DNA of 64,000 bases, taken from contig DYEF01000072.1 of the NCBI GenBank assembly GCA_020725805.1, positions 1 through 64,000 of the forward strand, in the 5' to 3' direction. Of the stretch, positions 251 through 9,917 are shown piece by piece. Source of the DNA: Bdellovibrio sp. Lineage in GTDB: Bacteria; Myxococcota; SpSt-1050. The translations under genes were made by a program, and so were the position numbers. The notes under the pieces were generated by a model. The model saw nothing but the letters and a program-made list of their open reading frames with translations, was not told the DNA's origin and searched no databases. Every line of letters starts with the position of its first letter. The first letter of the stretch is position 1.

Positions 251-2878
251 ATGAAGAAAATTTCAGTCGTTTTTTTTATTATGATTTTTGTACTTATTGC
301 CTGTAAGGATAATGAGATAATATATTCTGATGCCTCACAGGATGCGTCATTAACCGATACTATGTCTGATATAGGAGAGGACGTTGATATTACGTCCGAT
401 GTGATTGAGAAATCCTGCAAATTTGTTGATGACTGTAACCAGAGACAGGATTGCCGGGATTTCAAATGTGTTACTGCCGAGAAGTGCAGGTGTGAGAATA
501 TCGGTGATGATTTCTGCGGGTGTGCGTATAATAACGGTGAGGTCTGCAGGCCGTTTCACATCTGCTACAAACAGAGATGGATAAGAATATGTGAGACCGA
601 TATGGATTGCAGCGAGGATGCACAGTGCCTTGACGGACTCTGTCAGCCTTACAATTTCAGGATTGAGGTAAAATCCCCGTATCAGGACGGAGGCAAAAAG
701 GGGAATCTCAAGGCCGGATACGGTTTTTCCTATGTGGATGTGCCTGTGGGTGTCTCTATGGCGGGTTACGGTGCAAGAAAGGGTCCGAGGACTCCCTATA
801 ACAAGGAACTCGGAGGTACAACGGGATTCTGGGACAGGCCGACTGTCAAGGCGATTGCCTTTGATAACGGAGCCGAAAGAATTGTATATGTAAGAAACGG
901 TCTCGGCTGGTCACAGGATTATCTGATTTCGGGCATTGCAAAGGAACTTGAGAAGAGACTGGGCGAAAATTATATTGATAAGATTCTGATGAGTTCCTCG
1001 CACTCCCATTCCTATCCTGCGAGATTCTGGCATTTGCTACCGGATATGGGACTGGGCGTTCTGGGGCACGATAAATTCAATAAGGAGATATGGGAAAGGG
1101 TGGTAAAGTCCCACGCTGATGCAGTTGAGATGGCAGTTAAGAATTTGGTACCCGCCCGTATGGGTTATGTCCTCGATGACAATTTCGACCCGGATGATTA
1201 TATCACCCACAACAGGCGTTCCGAATCGATGCCTTATAAGGATTTCAGGAGCGCAGTAATAAAGATAGAGTATGACGGCGGAGAGAAAGACGGAAAGACT
1301 CTGGCTGTTATTATGCGTTACGGTTCTCACGGGACACATATGCAGGATACGCTTATGACCGGTGATGCACCTATTGCGGCGGAGATGATTTCGGAAGAGG
1401 TTCTGGGAGATAAGAACGGATATCATATTCCAGTGCTGTTTATGAACGGAAATGCGGGGAATACATCTCCGGCAGGGGAGAAGAACCCCGACGGGAAAGG
1501 CGTAAACAGAAAGGATATTCATCAGATTCAGGCAATCGGATATTTTGTCTCGAAGTATCTTCTCGAGAAGCTTCCGCTCGTTACCACCAGCAACAATATA
1601 GAGCTTGAGATGATAACCAGAAGGATCCCGTTTGCCCGTAAATATATCGGATACAGCGATAATGAGTTTTACAAGATTGAAAACGGCAAATCTGTCCCGT
1701 ATTATCTCGGTGCTTTCCAGTGCTGTGTCGATTATAAGGAAAGCGGATATAAAGACGGAGAACTTGGCTGCCTCCTCGAGACCACATTCCTGAATTACAA
1801 CAGACCTGTCTATCAGTTTACGAAGACAAGACTTGCGGCTGTCAATCTCGGGGGTCTTAATCTCGTCTCTGTAAACGGTGAACCGTCTGCACAGTACGGG
1901 GAATATGTTATCTCCGAACTGAAGAAGAAGGGTATGAAGGACGTCCTGACAGTCGGTTATTCGATGGACCATCATTTATATGTGCTGCTGAGGGATGAAT
2001 GGCTGCTCGGCGGCTATGAGTCAACAATGAGTATCTGGGGATTCAAGAACGGCGAATATATCGGCAGTCAGTCGATTGAACTTGCATCCCAGCTGTTAAC
2101 GCCTGAGAAGGAAGACAACTCCAATAATGTTAAACCTGAATGGTGGGAGGAGGACGAAACACCAATTACACCGGTTGCCGCAAAGGAAAAACCGGGATTT
2201 TTTGTAAATCCGGAGGCGAATGTGCCGAGAACGGGTATTGTCCTTGTGAAATGGCACGGAGGTCATCCGGGAGTGGATAATCCGGTAATATACCTGCAGA
2301 AGAAAAACGGAAATTCGTTTGAAGATGTCAAATATGCCGGCGGAATAGATTATACGGATTACCGTTTTCATATGATTGTCGAGTTTCTGGGCAATTACAA
2401 GGATAATGCGGACTGGCAGGCGAGATGGGAGGAGAAGGTCAGCTTCAGTTCAGGTATATATCGCTTCAGGGTTAAGGGAAATTATATCGATAACGGGAAG
2501 AATACGTCCTATGAGATATATTCTCAGGAATTCAGTTATAATCCCCTCACGAATCTTATGATAGAGGATATTAAGGTCTCGGGTGGCAATATCTCATTTG
2601 CGGTCAGTTATCCGAAGCCGCAGGACGGAGGTACAAGGCTGCATTCACTTTACACTGCCTACAACGAGCCTTACCCGCTTGAGTTCGACAAAAAGGTTAT
2701 TGTGCGGGTCAAGAAGGATAACGGGGCAGAGGAGGATCTGAATGTTACTCCTGTAAAGGGGACCTTCAGTAACAGAACGGCTTCCTATATTACGATTCCA
2801 TATAAAGGTAGCGGGAATTATGAAATTGTGGTAGAAGACAGTTATGGAAATAAAGGGAGCCTTAAAAGCGACCTGTAA
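251..2878 (+). CDS. Lipoprotein with neutral/alkaline ceramidase-like domain
   Basis: Lipobox LIAC; Asp-rich linker; MAGYGARKGPRTP..., KILMSSSHSHSYPARFW and NGNAGNTSP motifs resemble neutral ceramidase family. Confidence 0.75.
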   Translation: MKKISVVFFIMIFVLIACKDNEIIYSDASQDASLTDTMSDIGEDVDITSDVIEKSCKFVDDCNQRQDCRDFKCVTAEKCRCENIGDDFCGCAYNNGEVCRPFHICYKQRWIRICETDMDCSEDAQCLDGLCQPYNFRIEVKSPYQDGGKKGNLKAGYGFSYVDVPVGVSMAGYGARKGPRTPYNKELGGTTGFWDRPTVKAIAFDNGAERIVYVRNGLGWSQDYLISGIAKELEKRLGENYIDKILMSSSHSHSYPARFWHLLPDMGLGVLGHDKFNKEIWERVVKSHADAVEMAVKNLVPARMGYVLDDNFDPDDYITHNRRSESMPYKDFRSAVIKIEYDGGEKDGKTLAVIMRYGSHGTHMQDTLMTGDAPIAAEMISEEVLGDKNGYHIPVLFMNGNAGNTSPAGEKNPDGKGVNRKDIHQIQAIGYFVSKYLLEKLPLVTTSNNIELEMITRRIPFARKYIGYSDNEFYKIENGKSVPYYLGAFQCCVDYKESGYKDGELGCLLETTFLNYNRPVYQFTKTRLAAVNLGGLNLVSVNGEPSAQYGEYVISELKKKGMKDVLTVGYSMDHHLYVLLRDEWLLGGYESTMSIWGFKNGEYIGSQSIELASQLLTPEKEDNSNNVKPEWWEEDETPITPVAAKEKPGFFVNPEANVPRTGIVLVKWHGGHPGVDNPVIYLQKKNGNSFEDVKYAGGIDYTDYRFHMIVEFLGNYKDNADWQARWEEKVSFSSGIYRFRVKGNYIDNGKNTSYEIYSQEFSYNPLTNLMIEDIKVSGGNISFAVSYPKPQDGGTRLHSLYTAYNEPYPLEFDKKVIVRVKKDNGAEEDLNVTPVKGTFSNRTASYITIPYKGSGNYEIVVEDSYGNKGSLKSDL

Positions 2879-2898: not shown

Positions 2899-5127
2899 AT
2901 GAAAAAAATCATCATTATCTCTATCTCTATCTTTGCATCTCTTATGTTCTTTTCTGCCTGTACGGAAGATAAGAAGATTGAGTATGCTGACGGCGGTGCG
3001 GATACTGCACAGACAGAGGATGTAACTGTTACAGAAGATACGGGCGGCGGGGACACAGATGTTACGGAGGATACAGGACCGGTCACTAAGAGGCTCTTCA
3101 AGTACCGGGCATTCTCCGGAGTCTCGATGGGGGCATCGGGCGCCGGAATGATAGGGCTCAAGCACGCAGATAAGTTCGATATTATCGGTGTAATCGGCGG
3201 ATACATTGACTGGGTATATCTCCTGAACTATATGGAAAAGTACCATATGGGCGGTTTCTGTCCGATTCAGCAGATACTGGATAATATCGCCGACATAAAC
3301 GACCCGAACAAGAACCCCAATATTTACTGTGGCAAGAAGCCCCCCATCAATCCTGTAGACAAAGTCTATCTCGAATGGGAGCAGGGTTTCAATCACTGGT
3401 ATTTCTTTGATTCTGGTGGTGCATTTGACCGCGATGAGTATATCCAGTTGTTTCAGGATCTCTCTATGGCACTGGGTAATCCTGGATATTATAATGAAGA
3501 TTCCCCGTATCTGCCGGCAGGTATATCTCCCGCAGAATATCTAAGCTGGATAAATTCTCCTGACAGATGCACAAAGCCGATAGTTATAGACAAGCCGCCA
3601 TATAATTGTCACGCAGAATATAATCCTGAATGTAAATATCCTCTTATATCCTTTTGTGACGGTGAAGAGCCGATCGATAAAAAAGATCCGAAGTATTATG
3701 AGGAGGCAGGCAAGTATGACCCATATTACCCAAGTCATAAAAAGCCTTTCGTTGTGGTAATGGCAGTGGATTACAATCAGAACGGATTAAGGGATTACGG
3801 AGAACCTGTTATTTTTAATTCTCACGAAAGATTTAGAGATACAGGACCAGATGGCTGTTTTGACGAAGATGAAGACGGAAACGGTGGTTGCTGTACAAAC
3901 GACAGAACGAAATGCAAATACGACAAGGCAAATAATCCCGACCCGAACAAGGATAACTACGATGTCTTAAATAACTTCAACGGGAAGGAGAAGAACGGAT
4001 TTTATGATGAAGGTGAGCCGTATGATGATTACGGACTGGACGGAGTCAGGGCGGACAGCAATAAGGGGATTCCGGCTGACTACGGGGAAAACAACGGGAA
4101 ATTCGACTATTCGCCGAATACAATGAATTTCTTTGCACACGACATGAGAATGCAGGTGTTGAAGATCGCAAGAGAGGATATAAATAAGCTTAAAAATCTG
4201 GATATATATATAGATGCCGGAATAAGGGATATATTTCTCTCAGCGGCAGATTCGATCGGGCCGATTGGGGCATTAAGGAATCTTGGACTTGATGCCCGGG
4301 TATATGATGATTTCTATGCAACTCCAAATGCCATCCTGCCAGGATTAACCGAGACTGAGTATATGGATAGTATTCCTCAGATTGATTTTTCCCGCAAGAA
4401 TTTTGGCAGATATGTTCTTGTCAGATATGGGAATCCGAATGCCACACAGAAGCAGATTCTCGACGGGGACGGTGCACACGTGGGTACCGCCTCGCAGGTT
4501 ATCAACAGATTTCTGACATTCCTTGCATTTACTTCGAAGAGATTCCCCAAATGGGATAAGAAGCCTGTGACCTCAGCACTTACAGGGCTGAATCAGAACA
4601 AATGGTTTTACAGCAAGTCTCTGGGTAGCTCACGGAGATATACAATAAGTCTGCCGCCGGGATATTACGATGAGGAGAACAAGGATAAGAGATATCCGGT
4701 TGTATATCTGATGCACGGATACGGAATGGAACCCGGGGATATGGGTGCCGCCGGAAGCATCTTTCAGACTTATATGGCTCAGGGTGCATTGCCTAAATTT
4801 ATTATTGTATATCCGGACGGAAAGTGCTGCTACCGCAATATGAAGACCGATGAGGTTGAGTGTGGCTGCACGGGTTCTCCCAATCACGGAATGCTGCTCT
4901 GTGTCGATAAGGATGGTAAGGAGAGAGATATCCCCGAGTCAGACCTTACGAGGGAGTGCAACAGAGGTTCATTCTATACCAATGCGGTCTCGAATGTCTG
5001 GGCTCAGAGCAGAAAGGATGCTGACAAATTTATCGGCAGATATGAAGATTCGCTGCTCGACCTGATAGAATATATCGACCAGACATACCGTACAAGGGCA
5101 CCTGAAGAGGTAGAAGAGAAGTACTGA
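2899..5127 (+). CDS. Lipoprotein esterase (esterase-D/enterochelin-esterase-like alpha/beta hydrolase) with apparent circular permutation
   Basis: Lipobox FSAC; nucleophile elbow GVSMGASG near the N-terminus; YPVVYLMHGYG...FIIVYPDG...YEDSLLDLIEYIDQTYRT at the C-terminus. Confidence 0.75.
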   Translation: MKKIIIISISIFASLMFFSACTEDKKIEYADGGADTAQTEDVTVTEDTGGGDTDVTEDTGPVTKRLFKYRAFSGVSMGASGAGMIGLKHADKFDIIGVIGGYIDWVYLLNYMEKYHMGGFCPIQQILDNIADINDPNKNPNIYCGKKPPINPVDKVYLEWEQGFNHWYFFDSGGAFDRDEYIQLFQDLSMALGNPGYYNEDSPYLPAGISPAEYLSWINSPDRCTKPIVIDKPPYNCHAEYNPECKYPLISFCDGEEPIDKKDPKYYEEAGKYDPYYPSHKKPFVVVMAVDYNQNGLRDYGEPVIFNSHERFRDTGPDGCFDEDEDGNGGCCTNDRTKCKYDKANNPDPNKDNYDVLNNFNGKEKNGFYDEGEPYDDYGLDGVRADSNKGIPADYGENNGKFDYSPNTMNFFAHDMRMQVLKIAREDINKLKNLDIYIDAGIRDIFLSAADSIGPIGALRNLGLDARVYDDFYATPNAILPGLTETEYMDSIPQIDFSRKNFGRYVLVRYGNPNATQKQILDGDGAHVGTASQVINRFLTFLAFTSKRFPKWDKKPVTSALTGLNQNKWFYSKSLGSSRRYTISLPPGYYDEENKDKRYPVVYLMHGYGMEPGDMGAAGSIFQTYMAQGALPKFIIVYPDGKCCYRNMKTDEVECGCTGSPNHGMLLCVDKDGKERDIPESDLTRECNRGSFYTNAVSNVWAQSRKDADKFIGRYEDSLLDLIEYIDQTYRTRAPEEVEEKY

Positions 5128-8387: not shown

Positions 8388-9917
8388 ATGAAGCGGTTTA
8401 TCTGGATATCCGTATTTGTTCTGAATCTTTCTATATCTTATTCTCAGGGGTTACCGTCTTATATTCTTGATGGCTCTAATGTAATCTGGTTTGTGCAGAT
8501 TACTGATACACACGTGGACTCTGATGCCCTGAAATATTACAAGGAATATCTACCATGGGTATTGAATGAAGCAGTGCCTCTTATAAATCCGTCGTTTGTT
8601 GTGGTAACCGGTGACCTGACTGATTCTACGAAACCGGCCATACCATATTATGGCTCGGGTCCTCACGAATATGAGTGGCTGAAATATAAGGAAATTTATA
8701 CGAATGCACTTATGACGCCGAGTTTCTACTATGACTGTCCGGGGAATCACGATGCATACGGAGACGGACAACTTGCATACTATCTCAAATATTCTATGCA
8801 GGGTTCATTTACGAACAGCACACAGGCATCTTGGTACATCGATAACGGAAAGGGGATATACCACTTCTTCTATGCCGCAACAACGGCAAATGACGGGAAG
8901 CAGTGGCCCTCGGACAATCAGGAGCTTACTGATGATGAACTGATTCAGATCGACAGATTTCTAAAAGAAAATCCGAACGCCTCGATGAGAATCGCCTTTG
9001 CACACCACGACTATGAAAAAGAGGATGTAAAGAACAAGGAGAGATTTCTTGTACTCCTCAAACAGTACGGTATTCCGTTTTTCGGGCACGGCCACGAGCA
9101 CGACATAGGATTCAGAAAGGGAGACGGGAATATAATCAAATTCAGACTTGACTCTCTGGGACAGTCAGAGGGGAATAATGTGGCAATATGGGCAATCGAT
9201 AATTACAATGTGACGATTAAGGTCTTTAAGGCTATGGCTGCCTTTCCGGCTGCAGTGATTACTGCACCGGCAGATGTGGTTTTGGACGACCCTAAGAACA
9301 AGGTTGAAAATCCGTATGTTCCGCCGGTATCAGTTTACTGCAAAAACGCTCCGGTGCGGGCACTGGTATTTTCGAAGGCAAATAATCCTGATGTAACATT
9401 CAGAATCGATAACGGCAAAGAGACCGCTATGACAAAGAGAAAGAAGAATCCTTATCAGTACAGAGGATATTTTGACGCAACTGCTCTTGGAACCGGTCTT
9501 CACACGATTACGGTTATTGTCAAGTCGGATATAACAAGGGAGACTAAAAACGAGTTTTATATCTCCGATATCCCCTGTGAATTAGGAGAAGAGGATAGTG
9601 ATGAGATAATTACCGAAGATGCCGGTTATGAACTGCCCAAGGATTCTGCTCGGGATGATATCAGTATGTCAGATGATTTTGGATTAGATGATTATACTGA
9701 GGAGAATACAGATATTGTGGTCTATGAAGATATATTTGATGACGTTGCTGACGGTCAGGATGATACAGAAATATATGACATTGCAGATACTAATGTCATA
9801 AAAGACGCAGGTTCAAAAGACATCTATTCAGCCGATATAATTATAAATAAACCAGACACCTCAGAAAAAGATTCTGACTCAGATTCCTCCGGCTGCAGCT
9901 GCAACTTTATTTACTGA
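8388..9917 (+). CDS. Exported metallophosphoesterase with Asp-rich C-terminal linker and SDSSGCSC tail
   Basis: Signal peptide; metallophosphatase motifs TDTHVDSD, GDLTD, GNHD, HHD, GHGHEHD; C-terminus DSDSDSSGCSCNFIY. Confidence 0.85.
   Translation: MKRFIWISVFVLNLSISYSQGLPSYILDGSNVIWFVQITDTHVDSDALKYYKEYLPWVLNEAVPLINPSFVVVTGDLTDSTKPAIPYYGSGPHEYEWLKYKEIYTNALMTPSFYYDCPGNHDAYGDGQLAYYLKYSMQGSFTNSTQASWYIDNGKGIYHFFYAATTANDGKQWPSDNQELTDDELIQIDRFLKENPNASMRIAFAHHDYEKEDVKNKERFLVLLKQYGIPFFGHGHEHDIGFRKGDGNIIKFRLDSLGQSEGNNVAIWAIDNYNVTIKVFKAMAAFPAAVITAPADVVLDDPKNKVENPYVPPVSVYCKNAPVRALVFSKANNPDVTFRIDNGKETAMTKRKKNPYQYRGYFDATALGTGLHTITVIVKSDITRETKNEFYISDIPCELGEEDSDEIITEDAGYELPKDSARDDISMSDDFGLDDYTEENTDIVVYEDIFDDVADGQDDTEIYDIADTNVIKDAGSKDIYSADIIINKPDTSEKDSDSDSSGCSCNFIY

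What the first reader, a model, noticed from the sequence alone, without database searches (positions are those of the whole stretch)
2899..5127. Secreted esterase that reads as a natural circular permutation of the alpha/beta-hydrolase fold
In esterase-D/enterochelin-esterase-like hydrolases the usual order is YPVLYLLHG -> FIIVYPDG -> YIDxxYRT -> GLSMGG elbow -> Asp -> His. Here the mature N-terminus starts at the nucleophile elbow (YRAFSGVSMGASGAGMIGLKHADKFDIIGVIGG), followed by the Asp region (IYIDAGIRDIFL) and His region (GDGAHVG). Only then come RRYTISLPPGYY, YPVVYLMHGYG, FIIVYPDG and YEDSLLDLIEYIDQTYRTRAPEE, where the ORF ends. The C-terminus stops where the N-terminus would continue, and the lipobox plus acidic linker sits on the new N-terminus. 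A tandem duplication followed by truncation would explain it.
Basis: partly seen in the sequence, partly recalled or inferred. Interest (0 to 1): 0.82.

Follow-up and report, generated by a model that had tools for sequence, protein, structure and literature searches.

The report
Naturally permuted, lipid-anchored Myxococcota esterase family
This gene encodes a surface-anchored esterase whose chain has been naturally re-ordered (the usual second half comes first), a rearrangement shared by a whole family across the phylum Myxococcota and apparently separate from the only other such case I found among related enzymes.

Summary
The observation and the main interpretation hold. The 742-aa ORF at 2899-5127 (+) reads lipobox, beta5/nucleophile elbow (S76), 326-aa acidic cap, Asp (D444), His (H527), then beta1-beta4 with the HG oxyanion loop (H606) and the alphaB 'YRT' helix, and stops there. 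It is not a local accident: about 110 homologous ORFs (82 non-redundant), mostly Myxococcota, have this order. None is canonical and none has two elbows or two HG motifs. Against solved canonical esterases the profile splits into two pieces in swapped order that meet within one residue; putting the halves back fuses them into one match. AlphaFold2 with 85 relatives gives one compact fold (pLDDT 94, pTM 0.93) with strand order 5-6-7-8-1-2-3-4. A precedent exists: 'type 2' extracellular PHB depolymerases (2D80/2D81) are cut at the same place. They are a different family: no match to their NCBIfam model, and a tree places them with canonical type 1 depolymerases (100/100) while this family groups with CE1/feruloyl-type esterases. 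So this is most likely a second, independent permutation at the alphaB|beta5 junction, with a large, probably Ca-binding cap. Activity and substrate are untested.

The parts
2899..2961 (+). Signal peptide with lipobox FSAC (predicted lipidated Cys21)
   Evidence: Sequence; lipobox-like signal upstream of the elbow in 60 of 82 non-redundant homologues
2962..3093 (+). Acidic D/E/T/G-rich linker, residues 22-65
   Evidence: Sequence
3094..3210 (+). beta5 - nucleophile elbow GVSMG (Ser76 at 3124-3126) - alphaC - beta6, residues 66-104; canonical middle of the fold, here at the N-terminus
   Evidence: Aligned to 7xrt 145-179; strands 11-16 and 36-40 of the model; Ser invariant 85/85
3211..4188 (+). 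Cap inserted after beta6, residues 105-430, with D/N/G/E motifs of Ca-binding type
   Evidence: No Pfam match; length 265-377 aa in the family; many invariant Asp/Gly/Glu; similar repeat in unrelated proteins L177 and L178
4189..4554 (+). beta7 - Asp444 (4228-4230) - alphaE - beta8 - His527 (4477-4479) - alphaF, residues 431-552; canonical C-terminus
   Evidence: D444 and H527 invariant 85/85; strands 376-382 and 446-451 and helix 472-489 of the model
4555..4602 (+). Linker joining the old C-terminus (alphaF) to the old N-terminus (beta1), residues 553-568
   Evidence: Position between modelled alphaF and beta1
4603..5124 (+). beta1-beta2-beta3-HGYG oxyanion loop (4714-4725)-alphaA-beta4-alphaB ending YIDQTYRT (YRT at 5086-5094), residues 569-742; canonical N-terminal half, here at the C-terminus
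   Evidence: PF00756 profile 1-66; profile 488-615 to 7xrt 24-143; strands 507-513, 518-525, 542-546, 576-580 and helix 656-670

Best explanation
The ORF encodes an exported, probably outer-membrane-anchored serine esterase of the PF00756/CE1 (feruloyl/acetyl-xylan esterase-like) branch whose chain is circularly permuted: the break lies between alphaB and beta5, and the old C-terminus (alphaF) is joined by a short linker to the old N-terminus (beta1). The chain should fold into one ordinary alpha/beta-hydrolase sheet. Ser76, Asp444 and His527 (all in the new N-terminal half) would form the triad, and the HGYG loop from the new C-terminal half would supply the oxyanion hole, so both halves are needed for catalysis. 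A 326-aa acidic, probably Ca-stabilised cap after beta6 would cover the active site and set substrate choice. Shown: order, homology, family-wide conservation, modelled single fold. Inferred: triad roles, lipidation, Ca binding, esterase activity, substrate (an ester in extracellular polymer or plant/cell-wall material). The confidence given is for the permuted single fold; for an active esterase about 0.75.
For: Native-order profile hits canonical structures as two pieces in swapped order with a one-residue junction (7xrt: profile 488-615 to 24-143, then 43-77 to 145-179). After de-permutation there is one continuous match (7xrt 27-188), and for homologue L006 Pfam gives a single 1-154 match at 80.0 bits against 70.8 bits in two stretches natively. 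The same swap appears against canonical PF00756 proteins of Myxococcota genomes. Permuted order holds in all homologous ORFs that can be judged. AF2 pLDDT 94.2, pTM 0.93, strand order 5-6-7-8-1-2-3-4. In Foldseek, canonical esterases align only partly (80-201 columns) whereas the known permuted 2d81/2d80 align over 309-310 columns, 318 residues. S76, D444, H527 and G607 are invariant in 85/85. The chain ends a median 10 residues after YRT.
Against: Model coordinates could not be measured, so triad geometry and a topology-independent superposition were not checked. The Asp-His part has no sequence-level alignment to canonical enzymes even after de-permutation (matches end near profile 183-190). 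H606 is Pro in 9 of 85. No assay. Foldseek scores to 2d80/2d81 are modest (E 0.008-0.011, rmsd about 10).
Confidence: 0.93

Rival explanations
1. The family is a diverged branch of the known type 2 extracellular PHB depolymerases, so that the permutation happened only once.
For: Same cut (alphaB|beta5), same order Ser-Asp-His-oxyanion His; 2d81/2d80 are the listed PDB hits that align along nearly their whole length in the native order.
Against: No member matches NCBIfam NF050059 (type 2) at E<=1. Profile-profile probability 2% over 34 columns. 2d80 is absent among PDB hits at E<=1. In the tree type 2 joins canonical type 1 and this family joins CE1/FAE, separated by a 100/100 branch.
Confidence: 0.12
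2. Two separate domains: an N-terminal Ser-Asp-His domain and a C-terminal truncated esterase remnant that do not share one sheet.
For: Pfam annotates mainly the C-terminal part.
Against: pTM 0.93 over 683 residues. The two pieces are complementary and non-overlapping on canonical esterases and meet within one residue. Neither half alone holds a complete hydrolase sheet.
Confidence: 0.03
3. Correctly permuted fold but not an active esterase: a pseudoenzyme or Ca-dependent binding/adhesion lipoprotein.
For: The cap is highly conserved and its D/N/G/E repeat also occurs in proteins without the hydrolase core; 9 of 85 members have Pro in place of the oxyanion-loop His.
Against: Ser, Asp, His invariant in 85/85 sequences that are mostly about 33-40% identical to the window protein.
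Confidence: 0.1
4. Assembly or rearrangement artefact of this contig.
For: None beyond the unusual order.
Against: Same order in many independent assemblies, including cultured Polyangium genomes.
Confidence: 0.005

Closest known systems
CE1 / feruloyl and acetyl-xylan esterases of PF00756 (7xrt BT_4077, 1jjf XynZ domain, 8z91)
   Same: Sequence homology in both halves: LPPGY, YPV.Y..HG, YRT, RAI.G.SMG; best PDB matches (E about 1e-26)
   Different: Those have canonical order and lack the large acidic cap
Type 2 extracellular short-chain-length PHA depolymerases (NF050059; 2D80/2D81 Penicillium funiculosum)
   Same: Circular permutation at the same alphaB|beta5 site; Ser-Asp-His precede the oxyanion His; secreted (motif order described in PMC2666664)
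   Different: Different sequence family whose nearest canonical relatives are type 1 PHB depolymerases; about 320 aa without the acidic cap
Other alpha/beta hydrolases with permuted strands named in PMC11878206 (3fle, 2z8x, 1lgy, PF11187, PF20591)
   Same: Departures from canonical strand order in the same superfamily
   Different: Those concern peripheral beta1/beta2 with reversed strand direction, not a break before the nucleophile strand

Membership tests
PF00756 (Esterase) | Score above the Pfam gathering cut-off | tested here: met
   40.5 bits against cut-off 22; all 28 members of A1 match at E<=0.01
PF00756 (Esterase) | HG module N-terminal to the nucleophile elbow | tested here: not met
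   Order reversed in the ORF and homologues; hence a permuted variant rather than an ordinary member
Alpha/beta hydrolase fold | Single sheet with nucleophile elbow, acid after beta7, His after beta8 | tested here: inconclusive
   Element order and invariant S/D/H fit and the model is confident; spatial triad not measured
Type 2 e-dPHAscl depolymerase (NF050059) | Match to the NCBIfam model | tested here: not met
   No match at E<=1 for any of 28 members; true type 2 proteins score 358-419 bits
[quoted passage not shown]
   H606 after S76/D444/H527; definition in PMC2666664
CE1 feruloyl esterase | Hydrolysis of feruloyl/acetyl esters | not testable with these tools
   Needs an assay
Bacterial lipoprotein | Signal peptide with lipobox Cys | tested here: met
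   Motif FSAC at 18-21 by inspection; lipobox-like in 60/82 homologues; lipidation itself untested

The most novel reading that the evidence does not exclude
Circular permutation at the alphaB|beta5 junction has arisen at least twice independently in secreted esterases (type 2 PHB depolymerases from type 1; this Myxococcota family from CE1-like esterases), marking a preferred break point of the alpha/beta-hydrolase fold.
Probability: 0.75. Interest if true: 0.62.

Novelty: new variant of a known kind. Interest (0 to 1): 0.55.

Why it matters
Natural whole-fold circular permutations of alpha/beta hydrolases appear rare; I found one documented parallel. A second, apparently independent family with the break at the same junction makes it testable whether that site is a privileged break point. 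Annotation tools see only fragments of PF00756 in these proteins, so the enzymes are likely mis-described. The family also gives a natural template for permuted esterases with a new N-terminus at the nucleophile strand.

Tried and rejected
Single-sequence AF2 failed (pLDDT 32) and was not used. Search for an unpermuted carrier of the same cap across 197 genomes of the phylum: every complete hydrolase with the cap among the fetched loci was permuted; two proteins without the hydrolase core carried the repeat only. Search for tandem-duplication intermediates (two elbows or two HG in one ORF): none. Long N-terminal extensions in some homologues were examined as possible extra HG halves; no second PF00756 N-half was found there, only a weak Big_2 hit in one. 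Conserved neighbours: the ceramidase-like and the two downstream genes are shared only with the closest relative L033; the large ORF cluster reported in that call looks like antisense or spurious frames. Pseudoenzyme reading kept as a rival. Literature searches found no prior description of this family in the held library, which is not exhaustive. That the 2D80 fold is called 'circularly permuted' in its original paper is from my own knowledge; here it rests on motif order and on the swapped matches of type 2 proteins to the type 1 model.

Full report
OBSERVATION. The ORF at 2899-5127 (+) encodes 742 aa. The motifs appear in the order claimed: lipobox Cys21, acidic linker, RAFSGVSMGA (S76), acidic cap, IYIDAGIRDIFL (D444), GDGAHVG (H527), RRYTISLPPGYY, YPVVYLMHGYG (H606), FIIVYPDG, YIDQTYRTRAPEEVEEKY-stop. 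Pfam finds only PF00756 (E 3.6e-10) with its N-terminal profile positions 1-66 on residues 572-641. phmmer against PDB shows the swap directly: residues 567-642 match 1jjf 34-109 and residues 68-100 match 1jjf 145-177. The protein has no full-length paralogue in its own genome.

FAMILY. A search of 97 related genomes found homologues in many families of the phylum, and a scan of the species-representative collection gave 80 loci, nearly all named as Myxococcota, Myxococcales, Polyangiaceae or Deltaproteobacteria, including cultured Polyangium. Of 112 homologous ORFs, 110 retain the elbow motif (the other two start at a contig edge). The elbow is always N-terminal to the His motif, which precedes the HG motif wherever these patterns match, and no ORF has two SMG-type elbows or two HG motifs. 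Among the non-redundant members the chain stops a median of 10 residues after the YRT motif of alphaB. With the cap alone as query, 61 of 197 genomes of the phylum hit; every complete hydrolase among the fetched loci is permuted. I found no unpermuted carrier.

TEST OF PERMUTATION. The profile of 28 members hits 7xrt (feruloyl esterase) with positions 488-615 on residues 24-143 and positions 43-77 on 145-179, so the two halves meet with a one-residue junction. Moving the C-terminal half in front and removing the cap fuses these into one match, 27-188; for homologue L006 Pfam gives one 1-154 match at 80.0 bits instead of two stretches at 70.8 bits. The same two-piece swapped pattern against canonical PF00756 proteins of Myxococcota turns into one continuous match for the better-scoring ones after de-permutation. 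AlphaFold2 with 85 sequences gives pLDDT 94.2 and pTM 0.93; strand and helix order reads beta5-alphaC-beta6-cap-beta7-alphaE-beta8-alphaF-beta1-beta2-beta3-alphaA-beta4-alphaB (element names are my assignment from motifs). In Foldseek, canonical esterases align over 80-201 columns, whereas the PHB depolymerase 2d81/2d80, itself permuted, aligns over 309-310 columns (318 residues) in native order.

CATALYTIC RESIDUES. S76, D444, H527 and G607 are invariant in 85 of 85 members; H606 is His in 76 and Pro in 9; D439 is Asp in 83. The Asp/His assignment rests on invariance and element position, because sequence alignment to canonical enzymes stops shortly after beta6 even when de-permuted.

KNOWN PRECEDENT. 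[quoted passage not shown] Real type 2 proteins match the type 1 model in two stretches, the C-terminal part of the protein on the start of the model and the N-terminal part on its second half. The alpha/beta-hydrolase survey PMC11878206 mentions permutation only of peripheral strands in the passages found. The present family is not type 2: no NF050059 match and profile-profile probability 2%. A tree of de-permuted cores (31 rows, 160 columns) separates type 1 + type 2 from this family + CE1/feruloyl esterases with 100/100 support. Most likely, therefore, two permutation events occurred at the same alphaB|beta5 junction. Caveats: few canonical rows in the tree, monophyly of this family inside the CE1 side unresolved, and a recalled 2d80 sequence was used as query after it proved identical over all 318 residues.

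CAP. Residues 105-430 match no Pfam family and hold many invariant D/N/G/E positions. A similar repeat (DxGxDG...NPDPxGDNYDxxxNPxGTEGN) occurs in a neutral-ceramidase-like protein and in a repeat protein of related genomes, so it may be a mobile Ca-binding module. This is inference.

MECHANISM AND ORIGIN. Because Ser, Asp and His all sit in the first half while the HG oxyanion loop and strands 1-4 sit in the second, catalysis should need both halves. Tandem duplication with truncation is a reasonable route; whole-gene tandem copies exist (L044: two identical 750-aa proteins; L049: 752 of 759 identical), but they duplicate an already permuted gene and are not intermediates.

VERDICT. A real, family-wide circular permutation in a secreted CE1-like esterase; new variant of a known kind. 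The precedent and the missing activity data limit the score.

Noticed in passing
window 251-2878: Upstream gene, 20 bp before the esterase start codon, encodes a lipoprotein-like protein with a neutral ceramidase domain (PF04734, E 6.8e-12); conserved next to the esterase only in the nearest relative L033.
   Followed up: partly
L177 (minus-strand ORF of 643 aa) and L178 (plus-strand ORF of 581 aa): The acidic D/N/G repeat of the esterase cap also occurs in a ceramidase-like protein and in a separate repeat protein: a possible mobile Ca-binding module of this phylum.
   Followed up: partly
L041 40-3306: A permuted esterase fused to a C-terminal endonuclease/exonuclease/phosphatase domain (PF03372).
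   Followed up: partly
L044 and L049: Recent head-to-tail tandem copies of the permuted esterase gene (identical proteins in L044; 752 of 759 in L049).
   Followed up: partly
L066, L070, L095 and other Polyangiales loci: Homologues with about 300 extra residues before the elbow, Ig-like in appearance, no second HG half.
   Followed up: partly
window 8388-9917: Secreted protein with a metallophosphoesterase-like start (TDTHVD, GDLTD, GNHD) and an acidic C-terminal stretch near the esterase.
   Followed up: no
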